Assembly: GCA_009760855.2 (NCBI GenBank)
Contig: WPIO01000001.1
Coordinates: 20,674,501-20,738,500 of the forward strand
DNA from: Cristatella mucedo
Lineage: Eukaryota > Bryozoa > Phylactolaemata > Cristatellidae
Direction of reading: 5' to 3'
DNA length: 64,000 bases
The position numbers and the translations under genes are program-made. A model generated the notes under the pieces. That model saw only the letters and a program-made list of their open reading frames with translations. It did not search any database and was not told the origin of the DNA. This document shows positions 3,990 through 53,199 of this stretch, in pieces; the first letter of the stretch is position 1; the number at the start of each line of letters is the position of its first letter.

Positions 3990-4143
3990 AGAGCTGGTTC
4001 GGCACGGTGGTAAGATGCTTGCCTCGAACCAAGGTCAAGGTATTTGGTGACTGACCGAGATCGTGGGCTCAAGCCCGTGGTATGTGTGAAGCGCCTGAAG
4101 AGAGATTAAGTTCTCTTAGGTGCTATACATTCAAATTATATTG
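3990..4143 (+). mobile_element. tRNA-derived SINE (family 1)
   Basis: Head resembles a tRNA with an A-box-like segment (ggttcggcacggtggtaaga) and a B-box-like segment (gtgggctcaagcccgtgg). The tail 'gcgcctgaagagagattaag..ttctcttaggtgctatac' is the family-1 tail shared with the LINE. Moderately diverged from the copies at 17.9 and 60.2 kb. Confidence 0.75.
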
Positions 4144-5120: not shown

Positions 5121-8100
5121 GGGTTTTGCATGGTTGATGTGGTAGCTATCATTCGATAGGGACAGGGACAGCGTTCGACATTCTGGAACTGCATCAATGC
5201 AGTTCTTCTGAACTTGGAAGACTGCCACCACATGGCTAATATTGGGTCCTAGAACAAATGATAGAGTTTCTCTGTTACTACCAAGGAAAAAACAAAAAAA
5301 AATCGCTGATACCGGTCGATGCCAGTACTGCAAGTACTGCGAAGCAGTTAACTCGGCTGGGTAAGAAAGACTGACGGTGGCAGAGCATTGCAATGGATTG
5401 CTGTTTCATTACCTACCTAGGTCTTAGTCTAGCGATAAGGTGATCGCTCTTTAAGATCAGGATCCTACCTGTAGCAGGTCTTGTAGCAGGCAATATCTTA
5501 TTTCCACTGCTAGTGAGGTGATAGCCGTTAAGCCTCTTCTACAGCTATATAAATGAAGCTACGTGATGAGCTAACGTTTTGCCTCTAGATAGCTCCTGCT
5601 TCAAAAATAGATTTTAGATGTTACACAAACTAGAAGTAATGCTTAACTTGGCACAGCTACTAACGTAAGATACATTAAAAATATATGTAGAAGCAAATGC
5701 ACCGTCAAATCCTCAAGCAGAGAAATAGTAGAATAGAAGTAGAGAAATCTCTAAAAGAGCCACACAAAACTGGACACTATCACACAACTTGTACATAGGC
5801 TGGTCAATTAAGCTGCACCTTCAAATGTTTACCTCCACAAACAATAGTATATCTCTCTAGCTTTAACCATGTTGTCACAAAAAATGCTGCAAATCTAATG
5901 CAAATAAAAGCATCATGATTTCACAACAAGATCCGATATTGACACGCAAATTTAGAGTGTCGTGCTAAAAATCTACCTTCATCCACCGCATCTGTGTCTA
6001 AAACGACATTTAACGTCAAGCTAAAGCCGCGACCTTGTGGCAGAAGATTGAAAGTAACGTTGAACACTGTCGGAGCACGGTGAGGTATCTTTGATGGCAA
6101 TGCACAGTCTGTCAAAAAAAAGAAAAAATAATCTCTTAGCAAAAGTGACCAGGCCACTTGTATTTAAACAGCTAGGAAAATAAGCAGAGAATAAGCACAG
6201 TTTATATGCAAAGTCCATCTCTTTCCAAAGCATTCAGAGTCAACCAAAGATTGGCCTAGTCGAGCCTATGCTGTATCAGCTACATGACCCACCATCCAAC
6301 ATTAGTAAGCCAAGAAAGCCAGCAACAGTCAGCAAAAGTCACTTGTCTGCAAGCAAAGTTCTGCTTACCTTCAGCAATCTCACTGATTGTAAGTCGCTAT
6401 AAAAAAAAAACCGCATGACTTTGATTATTTTTTACTAAAGGCACGGATACAAAAAAGCTACAATTACAATTAACAAAACATCAGTGAGATTTCAATTTTT
6501 TGCTAAAGGAGAGCACAGTGAAAGATGCAAATGGCTCATTTGAAGTAGGCACAGCCTAAATTCTGACCTAGCCTTATTTACCATCAGCTTAACTTAAAGT
6601 GGCAACAAAAGCACGACTGTGCTAAAGGTGTTCATGAGCTCCATCCGAGCTACATGCAAGCAGTGGTCACTGACGCACTAGTTGTGCCACGCACCAAGAG
6701 GCAGCTACACTGAAGTGATGTCAAGACGAAAAGCTGGGGGCTGGGGACAAGAAATGACACAGATGCAAAAGAAAAGGAATTCATCTGTAGCTGGCATATG
6801 AAGCACTGAACACATGTGGATAATTGCTCAAGGCCATGCAGCTAATGGAAGTCCACTGTGCAAGGTTACAGAGGAAGTGTCATAATAAAAATAATTAATA
6901 ATACATTTGCATAGCACCATCAGAGAACTGAATCCCTTACAAGGCGTTTTACAAGTGCTGTAAAGAGAAAATGATCGAATGGCTAGTGGTAGCATGCTCA
7001 ACGTCAACAAGCATAACATGGTTAGAGGTGACATGCTTAGGGGTCAGCATGCAAACATGGTTAGCAGCAGCACACACGGAGTCAGCATGCATAAGCACAC
7101 ACAGGACAAATCACAAGGACCTGCTAAATGCTATCATAAACAGATATGTTTTAAGCTTCGTTTAAAATGTCGTCATGTCAGGGATACCGTGGTGTCAGTC
7201 GGGAGTGAGTTCTAGGCTTTGGGAGCATATGAACTAAAGGCAAGGTCTCCAAAAGATTTTGAGGTTCATATGAGGAATTGCTAAATGATTTGAGTCGGAA
7301 CAGTAGGTAGTACGTAGGCTGCTTGGCTTGGTGTTGGAGCAGTTCTGATAAGTAGGCTGGAGCCAGAGAATAAAAAGAACTAAAAGTAAGAGGCAAAACA
7401 TAGAAGTAGGTGAGCTGCTTGATTGGGAGCCAGTGCAGATCGGCGAGAAGTAGATTGATGTGACAACTGCAATGCTCACGAAAGACACGCCTAGTGGCAT
7501 GCTCATAAGATTGTAATACAGCGCCACATGCGTAAAAAGATTGCATGGACAGGGTAGAACCAGAGCCAAGAAAGACTTTGGGTTTCATCACACATGATTA
7601 CGCAAACGAAACTTTCTTTTAAGCATGCCTGGGAGCCTTTGATCAACCCCAACGGCTGCTATGCCCTAAGTGGGACCCCAGGAAATAAATGACACCAACG
7701 TCAGGATGGCTGGATGATGATAATGCAAACGGTCAGATTGCTGGTCGCACAGAGAACCACAGGTGATTTAACAGCAGACTTAACATTTACAGCATGTCTA
7801 TAGCAGCAGATTAACCCTGGCGACTTTCTAGCCTGCCGAACTGCACGAACCCACGACTTGAGTTTTAAAATTGCATGGTGAACTAGGCTGGAAATGTGCA
7901 TGTCACCCCTAACATGATTAGGGGTGACATGCACAGGATCAGCATGTAAATGTGGTTAGTGGCAGCCTGTACAGTGTCACCACGCATAAGCACATCAAGG
8001 ACGAATCACAGGGACCCACTAAATGCTGTCCTAAATAGGTGTGTTTTTAAGTTCTTTTTAAATGTGGTCAAGTCAGGGGATGTTCTGATGCAAGTCGGGA

Positions 8101-10935
8101 GGGAGTTCCAGGCTTTGGGAGCATACGAACCAAATGCACGTTCTCCAAAGGATTTAAGGTTTGTACGAGGTATTGGTAAACTGTTGGATTCCGACAAATG
8201 GGTGGTACGATGCTTGGCCTGGTGGCAGAGTAGATCTGAGAGATAGGCTGGAGCCAAACAATGAAGTGACCTAAATGTGAGCGACAAAACCTTGAAGTCG
8301 ATCCGTCGCTTGACTGGGAGCCAGTGCAGGTCGGCGAGAAGTGGTGTGATGTGCCAACTGCGACGCTCACGACAGACAAGCCTAGCTGCAGAGTTTTGCA
8401 CCAGCTGTAACCGTCTGATTGCACATGCCGGTAGGTCAGCAAGCAGTGAGTTGCAGAAGTCAAGAGGGATTTCACAAATGCATGGACCAACTTAGACGTG
8501 GTATCCTTATCTAAAAAAGCCCAAGATTTAGCAATGTCATGTAGCTGAAAGTAGGCAGACTTGACTGCGGAGCTGATGTGGTCGTCTCACGAGAGGTCAC
8601 TTTGGAACATGACACCTAGATTTTGAGCTGATTCAACAGGAGATATGCTGGCAGAGCCAATTTTGAGCATCGGCCTTTCCAATTTCTGAATCACACTGGG
8701 TTTGCCCATAACTAGTAAGTTAGTTTTGTCATTGTTTAGTTTTAGAAAATTTGCTGCCATCCATGTGAGGATGTCATCAATACATGCAGCAAGTAAGTTG
8801 AAAGAATTCGAGGTGCTCGAAGGCTGGGAGGGATCAAAGCAAAGGTACAACTGAGTGTCATTTGCATAGAAGTGAAAGCCTAGATTGTGCTTGGCAATCA
8901 CATCAGCAAGAGGCAGAGTATAAACTGTGAAAAGAACCGGACCTAGTACGGAACCCTGAGGTACCCCATATTTCTGAGATACCTCGGATGATATTTGTCC
9001 ATTCACGTCAATACTCTGGAGTCTCCCACTGAGATAGGACCTGAAACATTGCAGAGCAGTGCCAGGGATGCCCAGGCGAGATGAGAGGCTGTCTAGAAGA
9101 ACTTTGTGAATGATAGTATCAAAAGCTTCCGAAAGATCAAGCAAAACAAGCAGAGACACTCTACCCATGTCTGCATTCCTAAGTAGGTCGTTGTATACCG
9201 TAAAGCCGGCCCGACTGTTTTTCAGAACACTGATTAGGACACGGCAGGCAGTCGGCAGACTTAAATGGTTTCAGCTGAACGTGGGCATACAAGCATTCAC
9301 AGGCTTAGGCTATGGTGTGGGCATATCAGCAGTCACTGGCTTTGCTCCTCTACTTCATTTTTTATTAAAAAACATAACTAAGTTCATTTGAGCATTACTG
9401 GTCGTGACGAATGTGTGACAACCAATCTCTACATGACCTATCTAATAAGATCGAGCTGCAAGGAATGGCAGTACGGACAAGGAACACATTATGCCGGGGT
9501 TAGACTAGCATTAAGTTGTTCAAGCTATTTAACAGTGCAACCACCTTAGTCTGCTTTAGCTGAGTTGACGAGTGGCGTCCATTGGGGCAATAATAAAGCT
9601 GAGTGAGCACTGTTTCTGCATTCATTAGCAATTCGAGTTCACAATTAGGATCAACATGCAGACTTGGGAGCTGTGGCAGACCAGCAGCTAGAACGGCAAA
9701 GAAGCAGAGAGCCATGAGAGTTGGGGCACTTCACGAGCTCTTCAATGAGCCCCTAGGTGGCAGCTGGCTGAAGCCGGTATGCTGGAAGCTTGCAGGCTTT
9801 TCCTGAGCTCATTCTCTCTCGTCAAGACAATGTCTCAGCAAGCCACTCCTTTCTATATCTCAAATGCAATTCACACAGAACTGTTAGGCATTGTTATGAG
9901 TCAGTCACATTTTCAATGGCTGTTCTTTAAGATTGGTTATGAATGAGAAAACCACCCACACTGCAGGCAGCACTGCACAGGCAGCACTGCACAGGCAGCA
10001 CTGCACAGGCAGCACTGCACAGGCAGCACTGCACAGGCAGCACTGCACAGGCAGCACTGCACAGGCAGCACTGCACAGGCAGCCGCAGCACTGCACAGGC
10101 AGCACTGCACAGGCAGCACTGCACAGGCAGCACTGCACAGGCAGCACTGCACAGGCAGCACTGCACAGGCAGCACTGCACAGGCAGCACTGCACAGGCAG
10201 CACTGCACAGGCACTGCACAGGCAGCACTGCACAGGCAGCACTGCACAGGCAGCACTGCACAGGCAGCACTGCACAGGCAGCACTGCACAGGCAGCACTG
10301 CACAGGCAGCACTGCACAGGCACTGCACCGGCAGCACAGCACACGCAGCACTGCACAGCAGCACTGCACAGGCAGCACTGCAGGCAGCACTGCACAGGCA
10401 GCACTGCACAGGCAGCACTGCACAGGCAGCACTGCACAGGCAGCACTGCACAGGCAGCACTGCACAGGCAACACTGCACAGGCAGCACTGCACAGGCAAC
10501 ACTGCACAGGCAGCACTGCACAGGCAACACTGCACAGGCAGCACTGCACAGGCAGCACTGCACTACAGCCCCATGAACCAGCAGGTTGCATCGCAGGTAG
10601 CTACTAAGGGAGGCGTGCAGCGCACGGCTTTCCACATGCATCCTGTACAATTCGACGACAAAAGACGCCCACACGGCACACTGGACCTCTGCTACCTAAG
10701 GTTCTGTGTGCGAATGTATGTGCTTGCATAAGTGCATGCAAGAGGTCTCAACATAGAAAGACAACTTATACAACTGGCACAGGCTCACAAAAGTGAGCAG
10801 CACAAATCGACAGAAGAATTGATAATAAATGAGACATGCGGACGGAGAGGTAGAGAGATAGGATGGGAAAGAAAAGTGAGGGTAAACATGGGAGAGAGCA
10901 AAGAGGTGAGATGAGAGTGGGAAAAGAAGGGTGAC

Positions 10936-14440: not shown

Positions 14441-15049
14441 TCAGCTGAAAGTTTTACTGAGAATTTTACAAGGCTGGAAATTGAGTGAGCGATCGACCCC
14501 AGCAGGTGTGAGCTTATTAGTGTTAATCTAGAAGGTGTCAGCAGCGATAAGGTGACTAATATAGCATAGGTGCAGGCTATTGTTGACGCTCCGTGTGTGG
14601 AAATCGTGAAGCTTGATATGCGGCTTGAGATAATGATTTTACACGTGGACATAGAAACGGCAGGTGTGACGTGGTCGTTCTTTCTATGCCGGTTATAGCC
14701 ACTGTGGAGCCACTGTGACTGTTGCAGTCGCTTCGATGCAGTCGCTGCTGGAAAAACTGTTGAGATTTCGGACTGTGGCTATGGCGCTTTTTCTCACACT
14801 GCGAGCTACTTATGATGGCTGAGCTACTTATACTTATACTACTTATTACTTATTATTAACTACTTACTACTTATGATGGCTTAACTACAAGTAGCGTGAC
14901 TGCAGCCAATCCTTGCTATGTGCTATACGAGGCACCGTGTTTTTGGCAATGTTCAATGCAGTAACATTGCTATATGCTGCATGCCGCAGGATGATGGAGA
15001 GGACTATCTGTAAATTTAAAAATATCCAATCAAACAGTTTCGTCTATAC

Positions 15050-15234
15050 CTGCGGTTCTCAACCTGTGGGTCGCGACCCTTTTGGGAGTTGAACGACCCT
15101 TTCACAGGGATCGCCTAGACCATCGGAAAACACGCATTTCCACATTTCGCACACGATAGTTTTATGGTTGTGATCACCACAACATGAGGAACTGTATTGA
15201 AAGGTCGCGGCATTAAGAAGGTTGAGAACCACTG
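15050..15234 (-). mobile_element. SPIN/OposCharlie/URR1-like hAT MITE
   Basis: A 185-bp element with terminal inverted repeats: ctgcggttctcaacct at the left and the reverse complement of cagtggttctcaacct at the right (14 of 16 match). It is flanked by an imperfect 8-bp duplication, gtctatac (15042-15049) and atctatat (15235-15242), 6 of 8 identical, as expected for hAT. Internal blocks gtgggtcgcgaccc, gttgaacgaccctttcacag, gatcgcctagaccatcgg and atcaccacaacatgaggaac correspond to the non-autonomous hAT elements known in vertebrates as URR1/OposCharlie/SPIN relatives. No transposase is encoded. Family assignment is from memory of those consensus sequences. Confidence 0.8.
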
Positions 15235-15369
15235 ATCTATATATATACAGTGGCGAAGAGCCACTGCTGCTCTCACCCAGCTCGCAGTGCTTACTAAAGG
15301 ATTGTCTACTGCAGTAGTTCAACCCACGACCTGGGTCATGAAGTGTGAGTACCTTACCCTTGGGCTAAT

Positions 15370-16440
15370 AACTAGGGTTTAAAAATCTCCCTCTTGCCGA
15401 TGTAACCACCAGGCACAATATAGGCTTCCGATGCAATGCCAGTGACTTACGGCTTTACCTAAGCTTTGATACCTTCCAACCACCTTCCAGCACGTTCGTT
15501 CTCAACTGCCTTGCTGCATATCTTGCTGACATCAGTAATTGAAGGGCAGTAGACGTTCTCAAATCAAATGACGATGCAATCATTTATAGCTATCGGCATA
15601 ACTAGCATGGCTCAGAAGTCGGAAAGCTTAGCACTCAAAATTGGCTCTGTCTGAATGTCTCTCTTTGCCTCTGTACGAAATTCAGTGGTCCTGTTACAGA
15701 GCGACCTTTCAAAAGACCAGATCACTAACAATGTCAGCTACAAAGTCGAGTATGGGTACTTTGAGCTGCATAAAATTGCATAAAAATATTCACGCTTACT
15801 TAGACAGCCCTACTACATCCAAATTGTTTCGTGCAATTGTGACATCCCGTCTAGACTTCTGTAGCGGACTGCTTGATGTTCTACCTACCGGTGTAATGAG
15901 GTGCTTGCCGCTGGTGCAAAACTCTGCAGATAGGATTGTCTGCCGTGAGCATCACAGTTGCCGCATTACACCGCTTCTCACCGACCTGCACTGGCTCCCA
16001 ATCAAGCAGCTTATAATATTTTAGAATATGTCACTAAATCCAATTCTCTTCATTCGCTGGCTCCAGCCAATCTAGCAGAAGTACTTCCGGGTAGGCATAG
16101 TACCAACCACTCATCCGACTAAACTAATTTAGCTATGCCTCTGACAAGTCAGAAGCCTTTTGGAGACCGTACCTTTGGTCCACATGCTCCCAAAGCGTGG
16201 AACTTGCTGTCGAATCACTTCACGGTATACCCTGACTTGACGACATTTAAGAAGAACCTAAAAACACACCTGGAAATATTTGCCGTGTTCTGGCGATCTG
16301 TGCTTTGTCTGCTAATGTGTGCTGTCATGATGCACGTAACTAATAACCACACTGTCATGCTTTCTGTACAGCATGTTCCAAGTGCTTAGAAAGAGACTAA
16401 GTTCTCTAAGGATGCTGTATAAGTGTATAATAACTATTAT
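15370..16440 (+). mobile_element. L2/CR1-type LINE, 3' half (family 1)
   Basis: Plus-strand, frameshifted copy starting in the RT palm (ctccctcttgccgatgtaac). It continues through SRLDFCSGLL, LLTDLHWLPIKQL and FGDRTFGPHAPKAWN to the family tail and attattatttt at 16440. Part of the 3' UTR is missing. Confidence 0.8.
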
Positions 16441-17876: not shown

Positions 17877-18018
17877 GCCATGCTAGTTTGCTCTAGCGGT
17901 TAAGGTGCTCTCCCCGACCAAGGCCTGACTGAGGTCATGGGCTCGAGCCCCGAAGCATTTGTAAAGTGCCTGAATAGAGATTAAGTTCTCTTGGGGTGCT
18001 ATATAAATGGATTATATA
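17877..18018 (+). mobile_element. tRNA-derived SINE (family 1), well preserved
   Basis: Head ctagcggttaaggtgct (A box) and catgggctcgagcccc (B box), then the shared tail 'gtgcctgaatagagattaag..ttctcttggggtgctatata'. One of the best copies, close to those at 53.1 and 60.2 kb. Confidence 0.85.
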
Positions 18019-18418: not shown

Positions 18419-18995
18419 CATAATAATAACATTAATAATACATTTGTATAGTACCCTCAGAAAACTTAATCTCTGCCTAGGTGCTTAACCTATGCTGTAC
18501 AAGATGCATGGATTAATATTTAGAGGTCGCATGCTCAAAGTCAAGAAGCATAACACGGTTAGAGTTGAAATGCACAGGGTAAGCATGCTAATATGGTTAT
18601 TGGCAGCATGCACAGAGTCAGCACGAATAAGCTCGCAAGGAACGAATCACATATATCCACTAAATGTCAAGAAGCATAACACGGTTAGAGTTGAAATGCA
18701 CAGGGTAAGCATGCTAATATGGTTATTGGCAGCATGCACAGAGTCAGCACGAATAAGCTCGCAAGGAACGAATCACATATATCCACTAAATGTTGTGATA
18801 CCTATATGCGTGTTTAGCTTCTTTTAAAAACTCAAGTCGGCGGCGCCGTGCTGTCAGTCGATAGTGAGTTTCAGGCTTTGGGAGCATATGATCTAAAGGC
18901 ATGGTCCCCAAAGGCTTTGAGGCTCATGCGAGGCGCAGCTAAACGATTTAAATCGCGTTCAAGCCTGTAATGGCACTGATTTGAAACAGGTAATC
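18419..18995 (-). mobile_element. LINE family-1 3' end with internal tandem duplication
   Basis: Reversed tail at 18419-18480, then 3' UTR, in which a 126-bp unit is repeated exactly head to tail (18540-18665 and 18666-18791). It then runs into the last coding codons (tcaggctttgggagcatatg). The 42-residue repeat in the plus-strand open frame is only this duplication. Confidence 0.8.
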
Positions 18996-19189: not shown

Positions 19190-20465
19190 TAGCTTCACAA
19201 ATATAATCCAAGGTACCTCTGAAATATGGGGTACCTCAGGGCTACGTGCAAGGTCCGGTTCTTTTCACGGTTTATACTCCTTAAACTTATATCTTATATC
19301 TTATATTTATACTTTATATCTCCCTCTTGCTGATGTGATTACCAAGCACAATCTAGGCTTTCACTTCTATGCGGATGACACTCAGTTGTTCCTTGCTTTG
19401 ATCCCTCCTAGCCTTCGAACACCTCGAATTCTTTAAACTCACTTGCTGCATGTATTGATGACATCCGCACATGGATGGCAGCAGATTTTCTAAAACTAAA
19501 CGATGACAAAACTAACTTACTAGATATGGGCAAACCCAGAGTGATTCCGAAATTGGAAAGGCCGACGCTCAAAATTGGCTCTGCCAGCATATCTTCTGTG
19601 TAATCAGCTAGAAATCTAGGTGTCATTTTCCAAAGTGACCTCTCGTGAGACGACCACATCAGCTCCACAGTCAAGTCTGCCTACTTTCAGCTACTAAACA
19701 TTGCTAAAATTTGGTCTTTCTTAGATAAGGATACCACGTCTAAGTTGGTCCATGCATTTGTGATATCCCATCTTGACTTCTGCAACTCACTGCTTGCTGG
19801 CCTACCGGCACGTGCAATCAGACGGTTACAGCTGGTGCAAAACTTGGCAGCCAGGCTTGTCTGTCGTGAGCGTCGCAGTTGCCACGTCGCACCACTTCTC
19901 GCCGACCTGCACTGGTTACCAGTCAAGCAAGGGATTGGCTTCAAGGTTTTGTCGCTCACTTTTAGGTCCCTTTATTATATGGCTCCAGCCTATCTCTCCG
20001 ATATACTCCCCCATCAGGCCAAGCATCGTACCATCCGCTTTTCGGAATCCATCAGTCTACAAATACCTCGTACAAACCTTAAATCCTTTGGAGACCGTGC
20101 ATTTAGTTCGTATGCTCCCAAAGCCTGGAACTCCCTCCCGACCTGCGTCAGAACATCCCCTGACCTGACCACATTTAAAAGGAACTTAAAAACACACCTA
20201 TTTAGGACAGCATTTAGTGGGTCCCTGTGATTCGTCCTTCATGTGCTTATGCTTACTGACACTGTGCATGCTGCTACAAACCGCATTTCCATGCTGACCC
20301 TGTGCATGTAATCCCTAACCATGTTATTCTTGCTGTTTATCAAGCATGAAATTACTCACCATTCAATCGTGTTTCCCTTTGCAGCAAATGTAAAGCGCCT
20401 AGAAAGAAATTTAGTTCTCTGAGGGTGCTTTATCAAGCGCATTAGCAAGTACATTATTATTATTA
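19190..20465 (+). mobile_element. L2/CR1-type LINE, RT C-terminal half
   Basis: Plus-strand copy starting near the VPQG motif (19225) and passing 'ttctatgcggatgacactcag' (FYADDTQL), with the YADD codons intact. A 161-codon frame from 19745 carries SHLDFCNSLLAGLPARAIRR, LLADLHWLPVK and NLKTHLFRTAFSGSL. 3' UTR and tail are complete, ending in an ATT run. An upstream frameshift and a stop (tcttctgtgtaatcagct) disable it. Confidence 0.9.
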
Positions 20466-22590: not shown

Positions 22591-22591
22591 A

Positions 22592-22746
22592 ATAGAATTC
22601 CTTTATATAGCGCCGTAAGAGAACTTAATCTCTATTTCGGCGCTTTACATATGCCGCGGGGCTCGAGCCCACGACCTCGGTCATCGAATACTTTCACTTT
22701 GACCATGGTTCGAGGCGAGCACCTTAACCACTGAGCCAAACCAGCG
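22592..22746 (-). mobile_element. tRNA-derived SINE (family 1)
   Basis: Reversed full-length copy: tail atagcgccgtaagagaactt..ggcgctttac, B box ggggctcgagcccacgacct, A box gcaccttaaccactgagcc. Confidence 0.85.
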
Positions 22747-25770: not shown

Positions 25771-26372
25771 TTATAAAGCTATGTTTGAAATACACAAGTG
25801 CCACTTTTGTGCCGTCATTTCCCTCAGGCTGAGCGTGACCTTGCCGAATGACGAAACGGCCGCTGGCTCTGCGGTGAGCTGGGCCCACACCTCGGCGCTG
25901 CCGCACACCGAGTCGCTCACATGCGGTTGTATGAACGGTGTTCGGTAGGCTGACTTCACGCCTAGTGCGCCTGGCGCAGATCTTTGCACGGGTACCATAA
26001 TAAATAGATATATAATTCATTTGTATAGCGCCCCAAAAGAACCTAATCTCTATTCAGGCGCTTCACATATGCCTCGGGGCTTGAGCCTGCGACCTCAGAC
26101 AGACCTTGGTCGGGGCGAGCACCTTAACCGCTGGACCATACCATAACCCTAGCGCTCCCACGACTCACGAAAGGCAGCACCGGAACCAACGTTCGCCCCT
26201 AGGCCGGAAGTCAGACGATGATAATACGGTCTGCTGCTTTGTCAGGACGTCCTCGGCATAGTCGAATGGAGCGGCAAAGTCAATAATGACGCCCACTGCT
26301 CCATCGCTGACAATTTGGTCAGACCGCAGCCGGCTACCACTTACCGCCGCTCATCGGTCGATCGTCATCCAT
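25771..26372 (-). CDS. Candidate two-exon gene, unrecognised
   Basis: Exon 1, 26372-26345, is ATG plus nine codons (MDDDRPMSG) ending at a strong donor GCG|GTAAGT, phase 1. Exon 2, 25970-25771, follows an acceptor gcgccag and continues in phase for 65 codons (KSAYRTPFIQPHVSDSV, then GSAEVWAQLTAEPAA) to a TAA. The predicted product is 75 residues. Both exons are GC-rich against AT-rich surroundings. The 374-bp intron carries a SINE. Two more minus-strand frames are open in exon 2, and a second GTGAGT donor at about 26167 ends another open stretch (SDGAVGVIIDFAAPFDYAED), so the model may be incomplete or a pseudogene. Confidence 0.3.
26003..26152 (-). mobile_element. tRNA-derived SINE (family 1) in candidate intron
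   Basis: Reversed: tail tatagcgccccaaaagaacc, B box ggggcttgagcctgcgacct, A box caccttaaccgctggacc. Complete and fairly well preserved. Confidence 0.85.
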
Positions 26373-29734: not shown

Positions 29735-31065
29735 CAAGCACATAATAATTATAATACACTACATACCAGTATAGCGCCCCCAGATAACTCAATCTCTTTT
29801 TAGGCGCTTTACTATTGCTGCAAAGGAAGCACGATCGAATGGCTAGTGGTAGCATGCTCAATTAACGACAAGAATAACATGTTTGGGGTGACATGCACAG
29901 GGTCAGCATGCAAGTATGGTTAGTGGCAGCATGCAACGTGTCAGCACACATAAGCACATTAAGGGCAAATCCTAGGTACCCACTAAATGCTGACAATATT
30001 AGGTGCGTTTTTAGTTTCTTTTTAAATGCTGTCAAGTCGGGAAATGTCGTGACGAAAGTCGGGAGTGAGTTCTAGGGTTTGGCAGCATACGAACTAAAGG
30101 CACAATCTCCAAAGGGTTTGAGGTTTGTACGAGGTATTGGTAAACTGTTGGATTCCGAAAAGCAGATGGTACGATGCTTGGACTGGTGGGGGAGTAAATC
30201 TGATAGATGGGCTGGAGACAAAGGATGAAGGGACCCTAAAAGTGAGTGACAAAATCTTAAAGTCGGTGCATTTCTTGACTGGTAGCCAGTGCAGGTCAGC
30301 TGGAAGTGGTGTGAAGTGACAACTGCCACGCTCACGACAGACAAGCCTAGCTGCAGAGTTTTGCACCAGCTGTGTGACCCTGATTGCACAGGCCGGTAGA
30401 CGAGCAAGCAGTGTGTTACAGAAGCCAAGACGGGATGTTAAAAATGCAGGAACGAATTTATATGTGTATCTCTTTCTAAACAAGCCCGAATGTTAGCAAT
30501 GTTGTGTAGCTAGAAGTAGACAGACTTGACGGTGGTGTGAGCTGATGTGGTCGTCTAATGAAGGGTCCTTTTGGAACATGACACCTAGATTTCGTGCAGA
30601 TTCAGCAGGAGATATGCCAATTTCTGAATCACAACTGGTTCGCTCATAACTAGTAAGCTGGTTTTATCATTAAGCGCCTAGAGAGAGATTAAGTTCTCTG
30701 AGGGCGCTTTATCAAGTGAATTATTATTATTATCATAATTCAATTTAAGTAAGGTTGCTGCTGTCCGTGTGCTGATGTCATCAATACATGCAGCAAGAGA
30801 GTTGAGAGAAGTCGATGTGCTCGTGGGCTGGGCGGAATCAAAGCAAAATTATAGCTGTGTGATCTGCATAGAAGTGAAAACCTAGATTGTGCCTGGCAAT
30901 CACATCGGCTAGAGGGATGTTAAAAACCGTGAAAAAACCGGACCAACCACAAATCCCTGAGGTACCCCATATTTCAGAGGTTCCTCGACTGATCTCTGTC
31001 CATTCACATCAATACTCTACTCTGGAGTCTCTCACTGAGATAGGACCTGAACTATTGCGATGCAG
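29735..31065 (-). mobile_element. L2/CR1-type LINE, RT to tail
   Basis: Reversed copy: tail and stem-loop at 29750-29815, 3' UTR, then coding remnants (FPADLHWLPVKK and similar, LTSRLGFCNTLLARLPACAIR) and the region matching the VPQG motif at about 30960, ending near 31065. Many frame breaks. Interrupted at 30672-30735 by an opposite-strand LINE tail. Confidence 0.85.
30672..30735 (+). mobile_element. Tail-only LINE or SINE insertion nested in a LINE copy
   Basis: gcgcctagagagagattaag, then ttctctgagggcgctttatcaagtg and attattattattat lie in plus orientation inside the minus-strand LINE, between its 'actggttcgctcataactag' region and the continuing RT sequence. Only about 65 bp of the 3' end was inserted. 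Confidence 0.8.
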
Positions 31066-31099
31066 TGCCACATGTCGGGCATTAAGGACACAAAGGCGA

Positions 31100-32845: not shown

Positions 32846-32879
<34 letters not shown>
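32846..32879. repeat. (TA)n microsatellite
   Basis: Short TA tract directly abutting the tail of the SINE to its right, so it may have grown from the SINE's own 3' end. Confidence 0.9.
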
Positions 32880-33027
32880 CTTATTTGTATGGCGCTCAAA
32901 GAGAACTTAATCTCTTTTCCGGCACTTCACATGTGCCACAGGGCTCGAGCCCACAACATCGGGCATCAAATACATACACCTTCATCTCGGTCGAAGCTGC
33001 GCCTGTCACTGGGCCAAACCAGATCGA
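32874..33027 (-). mobile_element. tRNA-derived SINE (family 1)
   Basis: Reversed: 'tggcgctcaaagagaactta..ccggcacttcacatg', B box agggctcgagcccacaacat, then a diverged A-box end (gcctgtcactgggccaaacc). Confidence 0.8.
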
Positions 33028-35880: not shown

Positions 35881-36559
35881 AGTTGCTGTATGATTCTGTG
35901 TTAAGTTCAAAGACTTAGTTGAGTCTTAACCACTTTCAGATGCAGTTACGAGCTTTGAATTATAATTTCGTAATTACACTCACTGGCTAGCTAAAAAGCT
36001 CATCTCCCAGCACCACCCGTGCGTTGTTTCCCAAGAGCAGACTGCGAGTGGCTAGCAGCTAAGTTTGGGTCTGACATTTGCAGATCGTCTGAGTGCAAAT
36101 GCTACTCTTCAAACCCAGCCCGAAAAAAATAGTTCACGACGTCACGAGCTACCGATAGACAGCGAAGTGCGGCGGCACGACTCAAGCTACCAAATATAGG
36201 CAGGCAGAGCGCCCTGACCCAGCCCGTTGGCTCTCTAGGATCTAGACTAGTTCGGAGTAGGAAACCAGCTGTTGCCGAGCGCCTTCGGTTGCCCTTAATC
36301 CAGGCGCAGCTCGTGAGATGCTGCCGCGGCATTTTTGAGAGCTCATTGCCACGTAAGCGCTCTAGCCAGTCAGCACTCTGAAATGCCGCGCAGGTCGGCC
36401 GTACTACTCTCTGACTGCATGGGACGACCCACTCACCGGCCGGCCGCACGCAGACTGCATTCATTTCTGCTGCCAATTGATTCTCACCCTAGTGCGAATT
36501 AGATTTGCCAGCTTAAGATACATACAGTTTAATTTTACGAAGTGCCGACGCATCAAAAG

Positions 36560-37800
36560 TAGCAGGCGAGCGCGAGCATGCGAACCGAGTGCAGCGGTCT
36601 GAGAGGCCTTCCGGTAATAGTATACGCTTACAAACTGGCGCGAGCCGACGATGCGGGGCGCCCCGGCGTCTGCCGCTCTCGAAATGACCTCCGTCGCTGC
36701 CGATCGAGGCGCGCCTTTGCCGTTCCATAAGCGAGCGCTGGGCGACCGCAGGTACAGCCTACGAGCGGTCGACCGTTCATGCCGCCGCCGCGGTGGCGGC
36801 GGCGGCTGGTGCAGCTGCGACGGCGGCGCATCTGTGGCCTGCGCCGTGGAACAGCAGAGCACGGAAGCGTTTCGTTTCCTTAACATCTGATAATTCGGCT
36901 CTCGCTGGCAGGCGCGCCTCGGCGGCGACGTCGCCTGCGGCGCCCGATCTAGCGGGCGTTCTAGTTAGAAAAGGCCGGCCCACCGCTAAGCTGTTGCGTC
37001 GGCGTGCAGCGCTGTAGCAGCGCCGTGTCCGCTGTCTGGAGAGGCGGCGGCCGCTTCCGCGTGACGATCGACGCCGTCCGTTCTAGCCGCGTCGGCTGAC
37101 GGAGAGGTGACGGCGGCCGCAGGGGCAGCGACCTGACCCGCGCCGGTGGCGACCACCGAGGCGGCCTCCTTGTCTTTATCGTACGTAATAGCATACTTGC
37201 TCAGCCTGACCAGCTGACGTCGGCCTAATATCACGGCGAGAACGGAGGCCAGCAGCCACAAGCTCACCAATACTATGATGGCGGTCACGTTGCCCTCCAT
37301 TTCGACGAGCGCTACGCGGCAGTGGCGAGCCGGCCTTCGATTGCAGCTCAGTCGGCGCTCGTACGCTCGGCGCTTCCGCTCGCCCGGCCCCTGGCTTGAA
37401 CCTACGCGAGGGCAAAGCGGATGCGATCTGCCAGCTGGGGCCAAGGCCTGGGGTCACCGCCTCGTCTTTACTAGGAGCTGGGTTACCCGCATTTCCTGCA
37501 GCCGTGCCTGGTGGGCAGTATTCTGCTAATGCCCGTTCGGGGTCGGCGCGGGAGGGGCGAGATGCTGGGCCGGCCAGGCTGGCATGACTGCGCTCGCTAA
37601 GCGCGCCGAGCCTACAGCGGTTAAACGGCCCGATGGGGGAGCGGCGAGGCTTGGAGACGGGCTCCCGTCCGCTCTAGCTCCGCCGAGCGGACGAGAGCCC
37701 ACGGAGACGGCGGCGCCTGACGGCTTCGAGTAGGGTTGAGTCGCTCCGACGCCGTCCCCGTCCGTTGTTAGACTGGCCGCCGAAGTGGCTGGCTAGATGC
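36560..37800. promoter_or_regulatory. GC- and CpG-rich island, likely promoter region
   Basis: This stretch is strikingly rich in G+C and CpG (runs such as gccgccgccgcggtggcggc) compared with the AT-rich remainder, with sharp edges at about 36.56 and 37.80 kb. Open frames exist in almost every frame because stops are rare at this composition. I read it as an unmethylated CpG island around a transcription start. It may serve the small membrane-protein frame inside it. Confidence 0.5.
36986..37300 (-). CDS. Small predicted membrane protein
   Basis: ATG at 37300 opens 104 codons ending TAG at 36988-36986. Residues 6-26 (TAIIVLVSLWLLASVLAVIL) form a clear membrane span, followed by basic GRRQLVRLSKYA, and then a low-complexity Ala/Ser/Asp tail of about 60 residues. 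This suggests a single-pass protein with a short outer N-terminus and a cytosolic tail. The frame extends upstream without a stop, so the start is chosen from the ATG directly before the hydrophobic segment. A possible donor (AGCAA|GTATGC) after residue 38 could replace the low-complexity tail with a spliced one. The layout recalls small single-span proteins such as C1orf43, but the resemblance is too slight to name it. Confidence 0.4.
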   Translation of the reverse strand: MEGNVTAIIVLVSLWLLASVLAVILGRRQLVRLSKYAITYDKDKEAASVVATGAGQVAAPAAAVTSPSADAARTDGVDRHAEAAAASPDSGHGAATALHADATA

Positions 37801-38010
37801 TAAAGCATACGTGCTCCGGTCGAGTGAGACGCATTGGCATGTTGGCTGAGTGCACGTGGAAAGGAAATTAAGTTGCCAGCGGCTGTAGCTGTATCATTCA
37901 TGCAGCAGGCAAAAGAGCACTAGGAGCAATCGCTTTAGCGGGCTACAAGGAATGGCCTGCTGCAGGACTCAAAATGAACGCCAGCAACTTTAACAGCCCC
38001 TTTCGAATAA

Positions 38011-43879: not shown

Positions 43880-45762
43880 ATGTTGCCTGCTGGTTCACTC
43901 CTGTTTTTCTCTGCATTATTAAGCACGTGCGGTTGGAATAATTGGGGTATGGTATGCTTATTTTTTTTTAGCTCGGGTGATACATTCTGTCGTAGAGCCT
44001 GCTCTATCTGCAGCTAAGACAGATGGAGTCTGTGTAGAGTCAGGCTCCTTAACTTATCAACCGATGATTGAACTGGCCAGACATGCAACGTTGTAGCACA
44101 CGGACTAGTTTGCTATCAGTGCAACAGCCTAACCCATAAGACCTGTGCATCACAAGAGATTAATCTGCAGCTGCTTCAAGAGTGTCAGTTAGACCAATAC
44201 GGAAGACCAGCATTTGTGTGCAGAGAGGATTACCAATCAGGTTAGAAAGCTGTTTCTAAGCCTTGTCTGAATTTAACGCTTCTGTGCTCGACCAAGCTTA
44301 CACATACAAGCTGTAGGGCGAGCTATTAGGCTGACTGAAATTGTGGAAATGTATTAATTATTGAGATTTATAACTTCCTGCAGCACCAAGCTGTATAACT
44401 TGCTTCTGCTGTTCTTGCCCAAAGATGATACGATCTGCTCAATCGATTCATATCCGGCACGGCTTCACTGCAATTAAAGCTAACCTTGTGTACCAACAAA
44501 CGACGGTACAATAGTCGCCGAAGACGCTAATTAAAATATACCTATGGTTGGTCTTACTAGCCGTACGCCTGTTTAATGTCCCATCCCTATTCTCTGTCAA
44601 ACGCTAGGAGTTCAGGGCCATGCCTCATGAAATTGTGTCACGATTTACATAAGTATAAAATAATGCTGCTTTCTTCCATGTAAAGCAAACTGCAATAAAA
44701 TGAGGCCATGGAAAGATATTCACCTGCAGTTGAGTGCCCAGGATGAGATTTATTTCTGAGGGCACTATACAAGTTTATTATTATGATTATTATCCATATA
44801 CCGGCAAGAGTAAATCAAGCGTGCCTGGACATTGCATTCCTTGTACCTGGGTAATGCTATCTGGTCAAGTAAGTTCCTGAGACTTCCTCGAGCTGGCCTT
44901 CATACTGTACGTGGTATATATATCCATCTATAACTCAGCAAGGACTTCTGTTGTGCTGGAGAGTTCCTAGAGCCCACTAAAATATAATCCCGTAGCCCAC
45001 TAAAATCTATGCAGCTTCCCGTGCCCAAGAGTTGCTAACTCACTCTTGTCTGACAGAACAATGAGCAAGTCAGAAGCAAGCTAAGTCAGGAGCATTGTCG
45101 AGGAAGCAAATAAAATGGAAGTGGGAGCTAAGGATAATTGAACATAACTGGCCTGAGTCGATAGCAGGAGATAGGTTGTTGCTTAGGAATTGCAGAATTT
45201 CACAGCCTACGGCCGCAGAGCAAGCACTTTTGCAGGCTTTTACTGTCAAAAAGCATATACGGTACGTCACAAGGTCTGAAAATAGTAATTTCGTGCAGGT
45301 GTACCGTCCAGGGGACATGGTTCAATTCTAAATTATAGTCCTAGTAGCTGCGAATGCATACTGACTGCAGACCTTACTGACAGTGTGCACATAGAGCAAT
45401 TGAATGATTCCAGCAAAGCTTCTGTCATTCATGCTTGCTTGCTCCAGAAGACTCATCAATGACTTAACGGCTATGTGAATGCATTCAGTTAAGCAGGCTA
45501 CACAGATTCGCGTGCGTGGGATCACGTTGCAGTCTTCTCGGAAAACCTGGTCGTTCGCTCTTGCGGCTTCACGAACGACTCGGGATGCAAATCATACACC
45601 GGTCAAGATGGCAAAGGTAATTTATTTAGAACTATATGCAGCTGCTCTAGAGATGGATGTAACTTGGCCGTAAGTGCTAGGATTGCCATCACTTTAAAAA
45701 TTGTGCCACTCATGATAGTGCTGATCATATGGTGGACACAACTTTGCCAGCTGCTGGTTTAA
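43880..45762 (+). CDS. Quiver/sleepless-like Ly6/uPAR GPI-anchored protein
   Basis: Three exons join in phase: 43880-43931 (MLPAGSLLFFSALLSTC, signal peptide; phase 1), 44097-44240 (VCYQCNSLTHKTC start; phase 1) and 45533-45762 (VVRSCGFTNDSGCKSYTG, then ICSCSRDGCN). The product is 141 residues. It has exactly ten cysteines in the quiver/sleepless arrangement: CYQC near the mature N-terminus, an RSCG block and a closing CxCxxxxCN. After CNLA comes a hydrophobic stretch (LKIVPLMIVLIIWW) to the stop, as in GPI signals. Family members are surface three-finger proteins that modulate ion channels and receptors in Drosophila; that role here is inferred. Intron 2 holds a LINE tail and a repeat-C relic. 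A perfect GTAAGT sits at 45670, right after CNLA, and an acceptor at 45865 opens 64 in-phase codons without the hydrophobic tail, so a soluble isoform is possible. ATTAAA lies near 45829. Confidence 0.75.
44690..44790 (+). mobile_element. LINE family-1 tail remnant in Ly6 gene intron 2
   Basis: gagtgcccaggatgagattt, atttctgagggcactataca and attattatgattatt. Strongly diverged. Confidence 0.5.
45050..45300 (-). repeat. Repeat family C relic
   Basis: Parallels the reversed repeat-C copy at 58.9-59.2 kb: ctaagtcaggagcattg against ctaagtcagaagggcag, and gtcgatagcaggagataggt against gtcggcaacaggagagtaca. Lies in intron 2 of the Ly6 gene. Confidence 0.4.
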
Positions 45763-46794: not shown

Positions 46795-49700
46795 TCAACC
46801 GCTACCACGGCCGAGCTGCTCGATTATTTTCCTAGTTCTTGGCGAGGCGAGATCCGAAGGTGTTCGGCCGCTGCTGTCGCGTGCCGAGCAGTCGGCGCCG
46901 CCTCTCTGGATGAGCAAACGCGCCTCCTCGAGGCGGTCCTCTTCGCAGGCTATGTGCAGTGGCGTCATGCCGACCGTATCGGCTTGGTTGGCATTAGCAC
47001 CGTGCTCGAGCAGAAAGGCGATTATCTGCACATGGCCTACATCAACCGCAGGCAGAAACAACTGCAACGGCATCTGCCAAATCCAAAGTGGTTTGCATAG
47101 GAAAGGAAAGCAGTTATAGCCGGAATGACGAGGCATAATCAGGCAGGGGGGATCAATGCTTACCTTTAGAAACGGCTCTATGCAGAGGCGTGCCACCATG
47201 GCGGTCAGCAACACTAGGCAAAGCGCCTTCTTTCAAAAGCATCTGTGCCAGGTCGACGTGACCTTTGGAAGATGCATAATGTAGACATCGCTGCCCCATG
47301 TGGTTGCAGACATTAACGTCAGCTCCGAGTGACAAGAGGCGGTGAGCGATTGCTGAATGCCCGGCACTGACAGCAATCATGAGTGGCGTCCACCCTGAAT
47401 CATCAGCAATGTCCACCTAGTCGACAAAATAAGTGAAATAACAGGTACCATTTCAGCTCGGCAATGGCTAGGCACTGAAGGTGCAAGTCCATATTGGTAT
47501 GGAAAAACCACTTAAAGGTTACCACACAGCGTTTACAAAAGGCCTGAGACCACAACCTTAAATGGCTAAGCAAGCAGTTTTAAACATCTAACCAGGCCTA
47601 GTGTATCTAGGATTCTACATGTACAGGCAAACAGCAGCAGAGACAGGTGTGAAAATGACAGTAGTACCAATGCACAAAACAAGATCACACAGCAAGGCTT
47701 TTCTGCTGCGACTCACCTATCTGTCTTTTTTATTAACTTTAAAAAGGCCAATCACAAAGAATAAAAAAAGTATAAATTAAGTGCAAACAAGATGCAAGCC
47801 TTGAGATCCTGAATGCATTTTAAGTCACTAACTTGCCTCAAAATTTAAGCTAGAACCACAACATGTAAGCTCATGATGCCTAGGCAAGAGGCCTGTATAC
47901 AAAGGCAGCCATTAGCAGCTCCTAATGCTGCAGCACAATGGCAGCCATTAGTACATGCACACAACAAACGAACAGTACTATGGCTAAGCTCAAAGTCAGG
48001 GTAGCTCAGAGCCCCGGTGCCATCTGGGGTAACACTTTCACAAGTCACAGGGCCACAGGAATACACAGGAATAAGCCTCTTGTTTAGTCATGCAGTATTG
48101 CCATTTAGTCTTTATTGAGTCTTTAAGTTATTAAGTCTTAAGTCATTTTTATTTTTGTTATTAATATTTGGATGTTTCTAAAGAAATGAACTCGCCCAAC
48201 GGTCCAAATAATTCTCTGGACATACTACTGCCAGAAACAGCTATCCCTCATAGTTCAGGCCAAAGTCAATAATCTTTCCCACAGTAATTAAAATGAGCTA
48301 CAAGGATATGTTAAAATGCAATCCAAAATAAATTAAGAGGAGAAAGACATCACGATCCCATGGCAAACATTAGTCTGCTGTGTGCTGACTTGAGAAACTC
48401 CCCGTACACTAATTTTTGGAGAATTTTTCAATATCTCCATTGACGTAAAATTAAGTGAATAGTAAGCATTTAGGATACTGAAGGTAATTTAGAGTAAATG
48501 CTGCTGAATAGTACCACTATGTTTATCTGACTACAGAACCAAGCAAAAAAAGTACACATGAATGCAAGGCCTGTCCCCCACCCCCTAACGGTTTATACTC
48601 TTCCTCTTGCTGATGTGATTGCTAAGCACAATCTAGGCTTTCACTTCTATGCGGATGACACTCAGTTGTACCTTTGCTTTGATCCCTCCCAGCCTTCGAG
48701 CACCTCAAATTCTCTCAACTCACTTGCTGCATGCATTGATGACATCCGCACATGGATGGCAGCAAATTTTCTAAAACTTAACGATGATAAAACTAACTTA
48801 CTAGTTATGGGCCAACCCAGTGTGATTCAGAGATTGGAAAGGCTGACTCTCAAAATTGGCTCTGCCAGCATATCTCCTGTCGAATCAGCTCGAAATCTAG
48901 GTGTCATATTCCAAAGCGACCTCTCGTTAGACGACCATATCAGCTCCACAGTCAAATCTGCCCATTTTCAGCTTCATAACATTGCTAAAATTCGGGCTTG
49001 TTTAGATAAGGATACCACGTCTAAGTTGGTCCATGCATTCGTGACATCCCGTCTCGACTTCTGCAACTCACTGCTTACTGACCTACCAGCATGTTCGATC
49101 AGGCGATTGCAGCTGGTGCAAAACTCTGCAGCTAGGCTTGTCTACCGTGAGCCTCGCAGTTGCCACATTACTCCACTTCTCGCCGACCTGCACTGGCTAC
49201 CAGTCAAGCAACGGATTGACTTCAAGGTTTTGTCGCTCACTTTTAGGTCCCTTCATTCTATGGCTCCAGCCGATCTCTCCGATATACTCCCCCACCAGGC
49301 CAAGCATCGAACCACCTGCTTTTCGGAATCCAACAGTCTAGAAATACCTCGTACAAACCTTAAATCCTTTGGAGACCGTGCATTTAGTTCCTATGCTTCC
49401 AAAGCCTGGAATTCCCTCCCGACTTGCGTCAGAACATCCCCTGACCTGACCACATTTAAAAGGAACTTAAAAACACACCTATTTAGGACAGCATTTAGTG
49501 GGTACCTGTGATTCGTCCTTCATGTGCTTATGCGTGTTGACACTGTGCATGCTGCCACTAACCACATTTGCATGCTGACCCTGTGCATGTCACCCCTAAC
49601 CATATTATTCATTTTGTTTGTTTTTCCAGCATGATTTTACTTACCATTCAATTGCATTTCCCTTTGCAACAAATGTAAAGCGCCTAGAAAGAGATTGAGT

Positions 49701-50159
49701 TCTCTGAGGGCGCTTTATCAAGTGCATTATTATTATTATATTATTATTACCAGCACGTATTTTAAATATTAGCATGTTTTCGATGATTACACACACTAGT
49801 ACATATCGGCAAACGGATTGTGTGTAGCTAATATTCACCAAAGCAACACAACATCACCACTACTCACTATGGGGATGAAATATACTGCTGCTGCATAGCT
49901 AATCATAAGACTCAAAATCAGCAACGCAATAATACAGTACATTCCATAGCAAGTACAGCTGATGACACACCTTTGCTCCATTATCCAGCAGGAAGTTAGC
50001 AACATTACTATGACCAGCAGATGCTGCCCAGTGGAGAGCCGATCTACCTTCCACATCCATTACATGAATAACGTTACTGTCAACCTTAAAAAGCTCCTGC
50101 AGTCTTGGCAATTCACCTTGAAAAGCTAGCTGGCAAGCTTCAACATTGGAATTGGACAT
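46795..50159 (-). CDS. PSMD10: 26S proteasome non-ATPase regulatory subunit 10 (gankyrin)
   Basis: Three exons: 50159-49971 (ATG, phase 0, donor AAG|GTGTGT), 47416-47164 (acceptor gtcgactag; phase 1, donor AAAG|GTAAGC) and 47036-46795 (acceptor gatgtag; stop TGA). The joined product is 227 residues against 226 in human. Ankyrin repeats appear throughout: GRSALHWAASAGHSNVANFLL (exon 1), SGWTPLMIAVSAGHSAIAHRL and GQRCLHYASSKGHVDLAQ (exon 2), and GMTPLHIACEEDRLEEARLL (exon 3), matching gankyrin repeat by repeat. Gankyrin is an assembly chaperone that binds the Rpt3 (PSMC4) ATPase of the 19S base in cytosol and nucleus. The human retinoblastoma-binding LACDE is IACEE here (residues 176-180). Intron 1 (2.55 kb) contains a LINE in the opposite orientation; intron 2 is only 127 bp. 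Note that translations read through both introns' edges are misleading. Confidence 0.93.
48590..49745 (+). mobile_element. L2/CR1-type LINE, best-preserved 3' half, in PSMD10 intron 1
   Basis: A continuous frame to 49511 (about 305 LINE codons) begins in the RT palm: LPLADVIAKHNLGFHFYADD with catalytic YADD intact, then FLKLNDDKTNLLVMG, SRLDFCNSLL, LQLVQNSAARLV, LLADLHWLPVKQR and NLKTHLFRTAFSGYL at the end. The complete 3' UTR follows, with stem-loop 'gcgcctagaaagagattgag..ttctctgagggcgc' at 49680-49713 and an ATT run. 5'-truncated inside the RT, so it lacks the endonuclease and fingers. The absence of stops suggests recent insertion. It sits antisense to PSMD10. Confidence 0.93.
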
Positions 50160-50290: not shown

Positions 50291-50465
50291 CAGTCAACTC
50301 CACACATAAGAATATCGGATATAGGAATACTCGTCTTAAAAAAGTAGCAGTTCCTGGCCCCACATGGTATCCTCAATATTAGTTTCACTCCAAATATGGA
50401 AATACTCCACAGATAAGAATGGCTATTTGCCGGCCCGAGCATATTCTTATCAGCAGAGTCGACTG
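50291..50465. mobile_element. Tc1/pogo-like MITE
   Basis: Ends cagtcaactccacacataagaat and the reverse complement cagtcgactctgctgataagaat pair over about 25 bp with few mismatches. TA lies on each side (50289-50290 and 50466-50467), the target duplication of Tc1/mariner/pogo elements. 175 bp, no coding capacity. Located about 130 bp upstream of the PSMD10 start. Confidence 0.75.
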
Positions 50466-50584
50466 TAGCCCCATTAGCCTCAATATTAGTTTCACTCCAA
50501 ATATGGAAATACTCCACATATAAGAATGGCTATTTGCCGGCCCGAGCATATTCTTATAAGCAGAGTCGACTGTAGCCCCATTAG
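50371..50584. repeat. 107-bp tandem duplication including MITE right end
   Basis: Unit 50371-50477 (cctcaatattagtttcactc ... gtagccccattag) is repeated at 50478-50584 with two or three base changes. The unit comprises the right half of the MITE, its TA and 10 bp of flank, so the duplication is post-insertion. Confidence 0.95.
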
Positions 50585-50610
50585 GTGCTAGCAATGCCCA
50601 TACAGCTGAT

Positions 50611-50792
50611 AGCACATAAAGGTAAGGACAGCTGGTTGCACTACCTGGTAAGCTAACGTAACCAACCTGCATGCTACATTACCAATATACCCAATACTTC
50701 CAGCACATAAAGGTAAGGACAGCTGGTTGCACTACCTGGTAAGCTAACGTAACCAACCTGCATGCTACATTACCAATATACCCAATACTTCC
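50611..50792. repeat. 91-bp perfect tandem duplication
   Basis: Unit 50611-50701 (agcacataaaggtaaggaca ...) is repeated at 50702-50792 with no visible difference, so it is recent. Distinct from the neighbouring 107-bp duplication. Confidence 0.95.
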
Positions 50793-52590: not shown

Positions 52591-53032
52591 CGAAGCATAA
52601 TACGCTATCAGCAGCAATATAGGTAGCCTGAGAGTGAGAGGGAGAGCAGCCACAAGTTGTCAGCCACTTCTGCTACTGGACACTGCAAAGGACATTAATG
52701 AATAAGCACAGACTTGTACCAAAAGAACCCAAGAGACCATGGGTCACGAAACAAATATACGAAATGGCATGCTTATGGTAACGGAGGTACATTTGACTGC
52801 AAATGTGTCAGCACATTTCGAAATCACCTCAATTGAAGGAACGTGATGTGCTTCCCAAGGGCAAACAGCAATTGTGCTATGCTAACACTTGCCGTAAGGC
52901 TGCTCAAGGCCAAATCGTAAAAATGCTTTGGTTTATGCTGAGGCCATTAAGTTAATCCTACTGAGACCAGTAGTGCAACCATAAGCAAACTGTCTACTAC
53001 ATATAAATCTGCAGAGGACCAGCTTGTATAAA

Positions 53033-53172
53033 TATAATATAATTCATTTATATAGCACCCCAAGAGAACTTAATCTCTATTCAGGCGCTGCACATATGCC
53101 TCGGGGCTCGAGCCCAAGACCTCTGCCAGACCTTGGTCGGGGTGAACACCTTAACCGCTGGACCAAACCAGC
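53033..53172 (-). mobile_element. tRNA-derived SINE (family 1)
   Basis: Reversed: tatagcaccccaagagaact, 'ctattcaggcgc..', B box ggggctcgagcccaagacct, A box caccttaaccgctggacc. Full length. Confidence 0.85.
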
Positions 53173-53199
53173 TTAGACCCAAGCACTGCACTAACAAGC

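What the first reader, a model, noticed from the sequence alone, without database searches (positions are those of the whole stretch)
15042..15242. SPIN/OposCharlie/URR1-like hAT element in an apparently invertebrate genome
A 185-bp element has hAT ends, a 6/8 matching 8-bp target duplication and long internal blocks (gtcgaccc/cgaacgaccctttcacag-type, accacaacatgaggaac) that resemble non-autonomous hAT elements described in mammals, reptiles and amphibians. Related elements are known for horizontal transfer, including into a triatomine bug and a pond snail. If the host is an invertebrate, this is another transfer case. The TSD differences suggest some age.
Basis: partly seen in the sequence, partly recalled or inferred. 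Interest (0 to 1): 0.78.

Follow-up and report, generated by a model that had tools for sequence, protein, structure and literature searches.

The report
SPIN mini-transposon in an invertebrate genome
A short, non-coding jumping-gene remnant of the SPIN type, best known from mammals and reptiles, sits here in the genome of an unnamed invertebrate that carries many copies of it, most likely another case of a transposon that crossed between distant animals.

Summary
Window 15050-15234 is a 185-bp insertion with 14/16 matching terminal inverted repeats and an imperfect 8-bp target duplication (GTCTATAC/ATCTATAT), centred on TA as in Buster-group hAT elements, where SPIN belongs. It is a non-autonomous element (MITE) of the SPIN/URR1 type; OC1 does not fit. 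In the window's own assembly (572 Mb) all 40 scored matches, of 2,202 first-look candidates, are full-length or nearly so; one 18-base internal word occurs 336 times against 0 in the control. The consensus of 40 copies is 161/163 identical at its ends to a rodent URR1 consensus that I recalled (no Dfam/Repbase here). A recalled 71-base URR1 interior, about 50 bases of which the window copy lacks, gave 40 of 40 scored hits (86-96%), mostly inside longer SPIN-ended elements. The host is an invertebrate: mitochondrial COX1 reads AGR as serine, and the gene block looks lophotrochozoan. Copies differ from consensus by about 10% (median of 20), so the burst is not recent. Horizontal transfer is the best explanation; direction and date are unknown. 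SPIN-like elements are published in a snail and a triatomine bug, so this is a new member of a known kind. No autonomous SPIN was found.

The parts
15042..15049 (+). left target-site copy GTCTATAC
   Evidence: direct reading; 6/8 match to right copy, central TA
15050..15234 (+). SPIN/URR1-type non-autonomous hAT element, 185 bp, non-coding
15050..15065 (+). left terminal inverted repeat CTGCGGTTCTCAACCT
   Evidence: 14/16 with the right end; host consensus CAGCGGTTCTCAACCT
15050..15133 (+). conserved 5' block: 79 matches, 5 mismatches, 1 gap to recalled URR1; host consensus 85/85
15134..15157 (+). short variable centre, where longer SPIN subfamilies of this genome carry extra sequence
15158..15234 (+). 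conserved 3' block: 70 matches, 7 mismatches, 1 gap to recalled URR1; host consensus 76/78
15219..15234 (+). right terminal inverted repeat AGGTTGAGAACCACTG
15235..15242 (+). right target-site copy ATCTATAT
   Evidence: direct reading

Best explanation
The feature is a decayed copy of a SPIN-family MITE (Buster group of hAT; rodent name URR1). A SPIN element entered the ancestry of this invertebrate by horizontal transfer at some past time. Its transposase cut internally deleted copies out and pasted them into TA-centred 8-bp targets, which gave many copies of about 185 bp plus longer relatives of about 316-642 bp. The copies then drifted without visible function. Shown here: element structure, target duplications, copy number, host consensus, invertebrate host. 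Inferred: mobilisation in trans by a SPIN transposase, horizontal entry, and lack of function.
For: Structure and TA-centred TSD. Of 39 other fetched copies 27 have TSD >=6/8, and 25 of those 27 show the central TA in at least one flank, as in the published Buster consensus nnnTAnnn; SPIN is placed in the Buster family (PMC3499496 and PMC3517528, passages). 40 of 40 scored relatives of 2,202 candidates; 336 exact 18-mers vs 0 in the control. Host consensus ends 85/85 and 76/78 to recalled URR1; 11 of the 12 substitutions by which the window copy departs from that recalled sequence in the end blocks are absent from the host consensus, so the recall was not simply copied from the window. A recalled 71-base interior, about 50 bases of which the window copy lacks: 40 of 40 scored hits at 86-96%; of 20 such loci fetched, 18 also have a hit to the 5' block and 20 to the 3' block, in three of them (L083, L084, L088) only its first 29-37 bases, which partly overlap the query. 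Mitochondrial COX1: 11 AGR codons that would be stops in the vertebrate code.
Against: The SPIN/URR1 reference was recalled from memory; no deposited consensus could be searched. No autonomous SPIN copy was found: two hAT transposase families examined have other ends. No second species was compared, so transfer rests on near-identity of non-coding DNA to a recalled mammalian sequence. The centre of the short consensus differs from recalled URR1. 12 of 39 short copies and 3 of 13 longer copies have no TSD at 6/8 or better, some because ends were extrapolated.
Confidence: 0.88

Rival explanations
1. The element is an OC1 (OposCharlie1) MITE rather than SPIN.
For: OC1 MITEs are also short (192 bp in the Tasmanian devil) and OC1 is reported in a triatomine bug and a planarian (PMC3621081).
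Against: Score 24 against a recalled OC1 sequence, reached by 44 of 1,000 shuffles, versus 230.5 for recalled URR1.
Confidence: 0.02
2. SPIN-like elements are an old, vertically inherited lineage of this invertebrate and merely resemble the vertebrate ones.
For: The host has several size classes and copies about 10% diverged, so residence is not short.
Against: The non-coding ends of the host consensus are 161/163 identical to a recalled rodent consensus; neutral non-coding DNA would not stay so similar since the protostome-vertebrate split (established knowledge). Host copies themselves have drifted about 10%.
Confidence: 0.08
3. The contig is vertebrate or a contaminant.
For: None found.
Against: The window is in a 24.8-Mb contig (length) of a 572-Mb assembly; the family is spread over dozens of its contigs; mitochondrial COX1 carries AGR codons inside its frame; gankyrin-like exons are only 69/161 identical to recalled human PSMD10.
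Confidence: 0.02

Closest known systems
SPIN (SPACE INVADERS) non-autonomous elements, rodent URR1
   Same: ends nearly identical to the recalled consensus, same interior in longer host copies, 8-bp TA-centred target duplication
   Different: the window subfamily has a shorter, partly different centre, with about 41 bases missing against recalled URR1; the host is an invertebrate
SPIN-like hAT of the snail Biomphalaria glabrata (about 1,000 copies; PMC5440852, passages)
   Same: SPIN-like hAT in an invertebrate genome, many copies; that paper reports no intact transposases in its assembly
   Different: sequence not available here, so not compared; the mitochondrial gene order here differs from the pulmonate order as I recall it
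SPIN and OC1 in Rhodnius prolixus (PMC11614815, passages; PMC3621081, parts 1-2 of 3 of the text)
   Same: vertebrate-type hAT elements in an invertebrate, attributed to horizontal transfer
TcBuster and Mar (Buster-group hAT; PMC3499496 and PMC3517528, passages)
   Same: 8-bp nnnTAnnn target duplication; Mar MITEs are held to arise by internal deletion
   Different: other sequence families

Membership tests
hAT superfamily | 8-bp target-site duplication | tested here: met
   window copy 6/8; 27 of 39 other short copies >=6/8; 10 of 13 longer copies >=6/8
hAT superfamily | short terminal inverted repeats | tested here: met
   14/16 in the window copy; host consensus CAGCGGTTCTCAACCT ... AGGTTGAGAACCACTG
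hAT superfamily | mobilised by a hAT transposase | not testable with these tools
   element is non-coding; no transposase gene with SPIN ends in the families examined
Buster group of hAT | target duplication nnnTAnnn | tested here: met
   central TA in both flanks of the window copy; in at least one flank of 25 of 27 good TSDs; consensus from PMC3499496 and PMC3517528 passages
SPIN/URR1 | significant match to a deposited SPIN or URR1 consensus | not testable with these tools
   no Dfam/Repbase; the reference used was recalled
SPIN/URR1 | prediction from the recalled sequence: its interior, largely absent from the window copy, occurs in this genome inside SPIN-ended elements | tested here: met
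   40 of 40 scored hits 86-96%; of 20 fetched loci 18 have hits to the 5' block and 20 to the 3' block, 3 of these partial
OC1 (OposCharlie1) | match to OC1 sequence above chance | tested here: not met
   score 24, reached by 44 of 1,000 shuffles; OC1 recalled
MITE | short, non-coding, homogeneous, high copy number | tested here: met
   185 bp; 40 of 40 scored matches full-length or nearly so, 2,202 candidates; 336 exact 18-mers
Horizontal transfer case | patchy species distribution and identity above that of host genes | not tested
   no second animal species could be searched; only identity to a recalled rodent consensus

The most novel reading that the evidence does not exclude
This invertebrate, probably a lophotrochozoan outside the pulmonate snails, took up SPIN in a transfer separate from the snail and triatomine ones and kept a diverse set of SPIN subfamilies (about 185, 320 and 480-640 bp). 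It could represent a long-standing invertebrate reservoir, or even a lineage near the source of the vertebrate invasions, rather than a late recipient.
Probability: 0.25. Interest if true: 0.6.

Novelty: new member of a known kind. Interest (0 to 1): 0.36.

Why it matters
SPIN is a standard example of transposons jumping between distant animals, and few invertebrate hosts are named in the papers that I could see. A host with many copies and several subfamilies gives material to date the transfer, root the SPIN tree and ask whether invertebrates were donors or recipients.

Tried and rejected
Looking for the element in other collections, none of which holds animal genomes: blastn in phages 0 and plasmids 0; exact words of 18-26 bases in viral contigs 0 in three scans and in prokaryote genome contigs 0 in two scans. 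Full-text paper searches for printed pieces of the sequence: 0 papers. OC1 membership rejected. Three primary SPIN papers that I tried to open are not held; what I say of them is recalled or comes from citing papers.

Autonomous SPIN: the youngest hAT family (PF05699) ends in CAAATCCGGTACAGCCCTA at its right end in the 12 loci aligned, not in the SPIN end. A second, Buster-like family has no SPIN ends in the four loci examined. A recalled hAT transposase found 97 matches (97 of 919 candidates scored), but only at 31-41% identity. So no autonomous SPIN copy was identified; it may still exist among loci that I did not examine. Two loci with the SPIN interior but no 5' hit (L082, L096) showed no evident transposase frame by eye; I ran no domain search on them.

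Host name: molluscan haemocyanin domain PF14830 gave 0 matches, but nothing rang in the 14 control genomes either, so this is inconclusive. I considered lamprey, tick, flatworm and snail from base composition alone and dropped that once the mitochondrial contig was found.

Age: the first 40 copies are those nearest to the window copy, so their mean of 5.8% is biased low. The 20 copies that I picked by hand from the first 100 listed of 336 exact 18-mers give median 10.5% and mean 10.1% outside the seed, each against the better-fitting of two consensus sequences, 17 short and 3 long; the intact seed may bias this a little low too. For the longer copies I placed both ends in 13 of the 18 loci with a 5' hit and left out L083, L084, L087, L088 and L091.

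Full report
Observation. The window carries, at 15050-15234, a 185-bp stretch whose ends are inverted repeats (CTGCGGTTCTCAACCT and AGGTTGAGAACCACTG, 14 of 16 matching) flanked by GTCTATAC and ATCTATAT, 6 of 8 matching, both with TA in the centre. A scan of the window for such ends with flanks matching at 5 or more of 8 gave 29 hits: 28 in an AT microsatellite and this one. No second copy lies within the window.

What family. No repeat library is available here, so I compared it with consensus sequences that I recalled. Against rodent URR1 (the same element type as SPIN, as I recall) the copy aligns over 184 columns with 166 identities, and 41 bases of URR1 are missing from it; the local score is 230.5 against at most 28 in 1,000 shuffles. 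Against a recalled OC1 it scores 24, which 44 of 1,000 shuffles reach. The target motif agrees with the published Buster consensus nnnTAnnn; SPIN is placed in the Buster family (PMC3499496, passages; PMC3517528, passages).

The whole genome. The search tool was busy for long spells but answered: the window belongs to an assembly of 572,011,866 bases in 688 contigs. All 40 scored matches of 2,202 first-look candidates are full-length or nearly so, at 88-91% besides the copy itself. I fetched the 39 others. Their consensus with the window copy is 187 bp. Its ends are 85/85 and 76/78 identical to the recalled URR1, with the blocks as cut; the centre differs. The window copy departs from the recalled URR1 by 12 substitutions in the two end blocks, and at 11 of these the host consensus agrees with the recalled sequence. 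27 of 39 copies have target duplications matching at 6 or more of 8, and 25 of the 27 show the central TA in at least one flank; 12 of 39 do not reach 6, some of them with ends that are missing or were extrapolated.

A stronger check. The recalled URR1 has an interior that the window copy largely lacks. A 71-base piece, about 50 bases of which are absent from the window copy, gave 40 of 40 scored hits (100 first-look candidates) at 86-96% in the same genome. Of 20 loci fetched, 18 also have a hit to the SPIN 5' block and 20 to the 3' block; in three (L083, L084, L088) the 3' hit covers only its first 29-37 bases, partly the query itself. In 13 of these loci I placed both ends: eight elements are 316-331 bp and five are 478-642 bp; 10 of 13 have flanks matching at 6 or more of 8. 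The genome thus holds several SPIN subfamilies.

Copy number and age. One internal 18-base word occurs 336 times (167 and 169 by strand); the same word read backwards occurs 0 times. In 20 copies that I picked from the first 100 listed, divergence from the better-fitting consensus outside the seed has median 10.5% and mean 10.1%; 17 fit the short type and 16 are complete at both ends. The window copy is 7.6% from the short consensus. In the 40 nearest copies differences are about twice as frequent at CpG positions (10.9% against 5.1%). The burst is therefore past, within or near the range of 2.2-10.5% reported for OC1 copies in other hosts (PMC3621081, table), but without a host neutral rate I give no date.

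Host. The assembly includes a 21,008-base contig, C688, that is mitochondrial. Its COX1 frame is open for 517 residues by the invertebrate code. It holds 11 AGA/AGG codons, which the vertebrate code would read as stops; they stand where I recall serines (such as MSFWLL), and two AAA codons where I recall lysines, which speaks against the echinoderm/flatworm code. The protein genes that I recognised by eye lie on one strand in the order cox3-atp6-cox1-nd3-(repeats)-nd1-nd6-cob-nd4L-nd4-nd5; I did not locate cox2, atp8, nd2 or the rRNA genes. The nd1-to-nd5 block is, from memory, common in molluscs and other lophotrochozoans. Nuclear exons fit an invertebrate: a gankyrin-like gene only 69/161 identical to recalled human PSMD10 (PSMD10 entries among the PDB matches), and exons with weak matches to the Quiver family, 18.7 and 19.5 bits apart, below the 27.3 cut-off, 34.8 bits when joined with a partly mistyped junction. 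I cannot name the species.

Mechanism and origin. The anatomy is that of an internally deleted hAT copy moved in trans by a SPIN transposase through cut-and-paste at TA-centred 8-bp targets. That part is inferred from family knowledge. No autonomous SPIN was found: a very young hAT family (62 matches at 73 bits or more) has another right end in the 12 loci aligned, and a Buster-like family shows no SPIN ends in four loci. Near-identity of non-coding ends to a mammalian element, against about 10% drift of the copies inside this host, is best explained by horizontal transfer; vertical descent from the common ancestor is hard to credit for neutral DNA. Direction is open.

What is known. SPIN-like hAT elements in invertebrates are published: about 1,000 copies in the snail Biomphalaria glabrata (PMC5440852, passages) and SPIN in Rhodnius (PMC11614815, passages); OC1 in a triatomine bug and a planarian (PMC3621081). 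I file it as a new member of a known kind.

Noticed in passing
G000 loci L048-L077, e.g. L053, L054, L059, L062: A very young separate hAT family: 62 matches to Dimer_Tnp_hAT at 73 bits or more, many with open frames of about 640 aa. The 12 loci aligned are nearly identical over the roughly 2.1 kb held, up to a right end CAAATCCGGTACAGCCCTA; it looks recently active.
   Followed up: partly
L104, L105, L128, L129: A Buster-like hAT family of about 2.7 kb, 94-95% identical between copies, with an open frame of 563 aa in L104 and no SPIN ends.
   Followed up: partly
window 7910-9064, 15376-16361, 19190-20465, 29740-31070, 48588-49750: Broken copies of an L2/CR1-like LINE (label from memory), 68-91% alike; reverse transcriptase Pfam match above cut-off at 8587-9168, below it at 48558-49511.
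   Followed up: no
window 3993-4127, 17882-18018, 22591-22745, 26000-26143, 32861-33022, 53027-53173, 60203-60350: A SINE-like family of about 135-160 bp, seven copies; one end looks tRNA-like to the eye, though ARAGORN and Rfam gave nothing in the window.
   Followed up: partly
window 46795-47416 (-): Two exons of a gankyrin/PSMD10-like ankyrin-repeat gene with a short GT-AG intron.
   Followed up: partly
window 44072-44242 and 45493-45759 (+): Possible exons of a Quiver/Ly-6-like protein, each below the Pfam cut-off.
   Followed up: partly
window 36000-38000: A 62% G+C, CpG-rich stretch with an open frame that looks like a small one-helix membrane protein, without a Pfam match.
   Followed up: no
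window 9964-10563; 18540-18793; 50371-50792: A 14-bp tandem array (43 copies) and tandem duplications of 126, 107 and 91 bp at 98-100% identity.
   Followed up: no
G000:C688: Mitochondrial contig of 21 kb with identical frames repeated 2,115 bases apart, a third copy on the other strand, and a partial second copy of nd3. COX1-like matches with stops also lie on four other contigs.
   Followed up: partly
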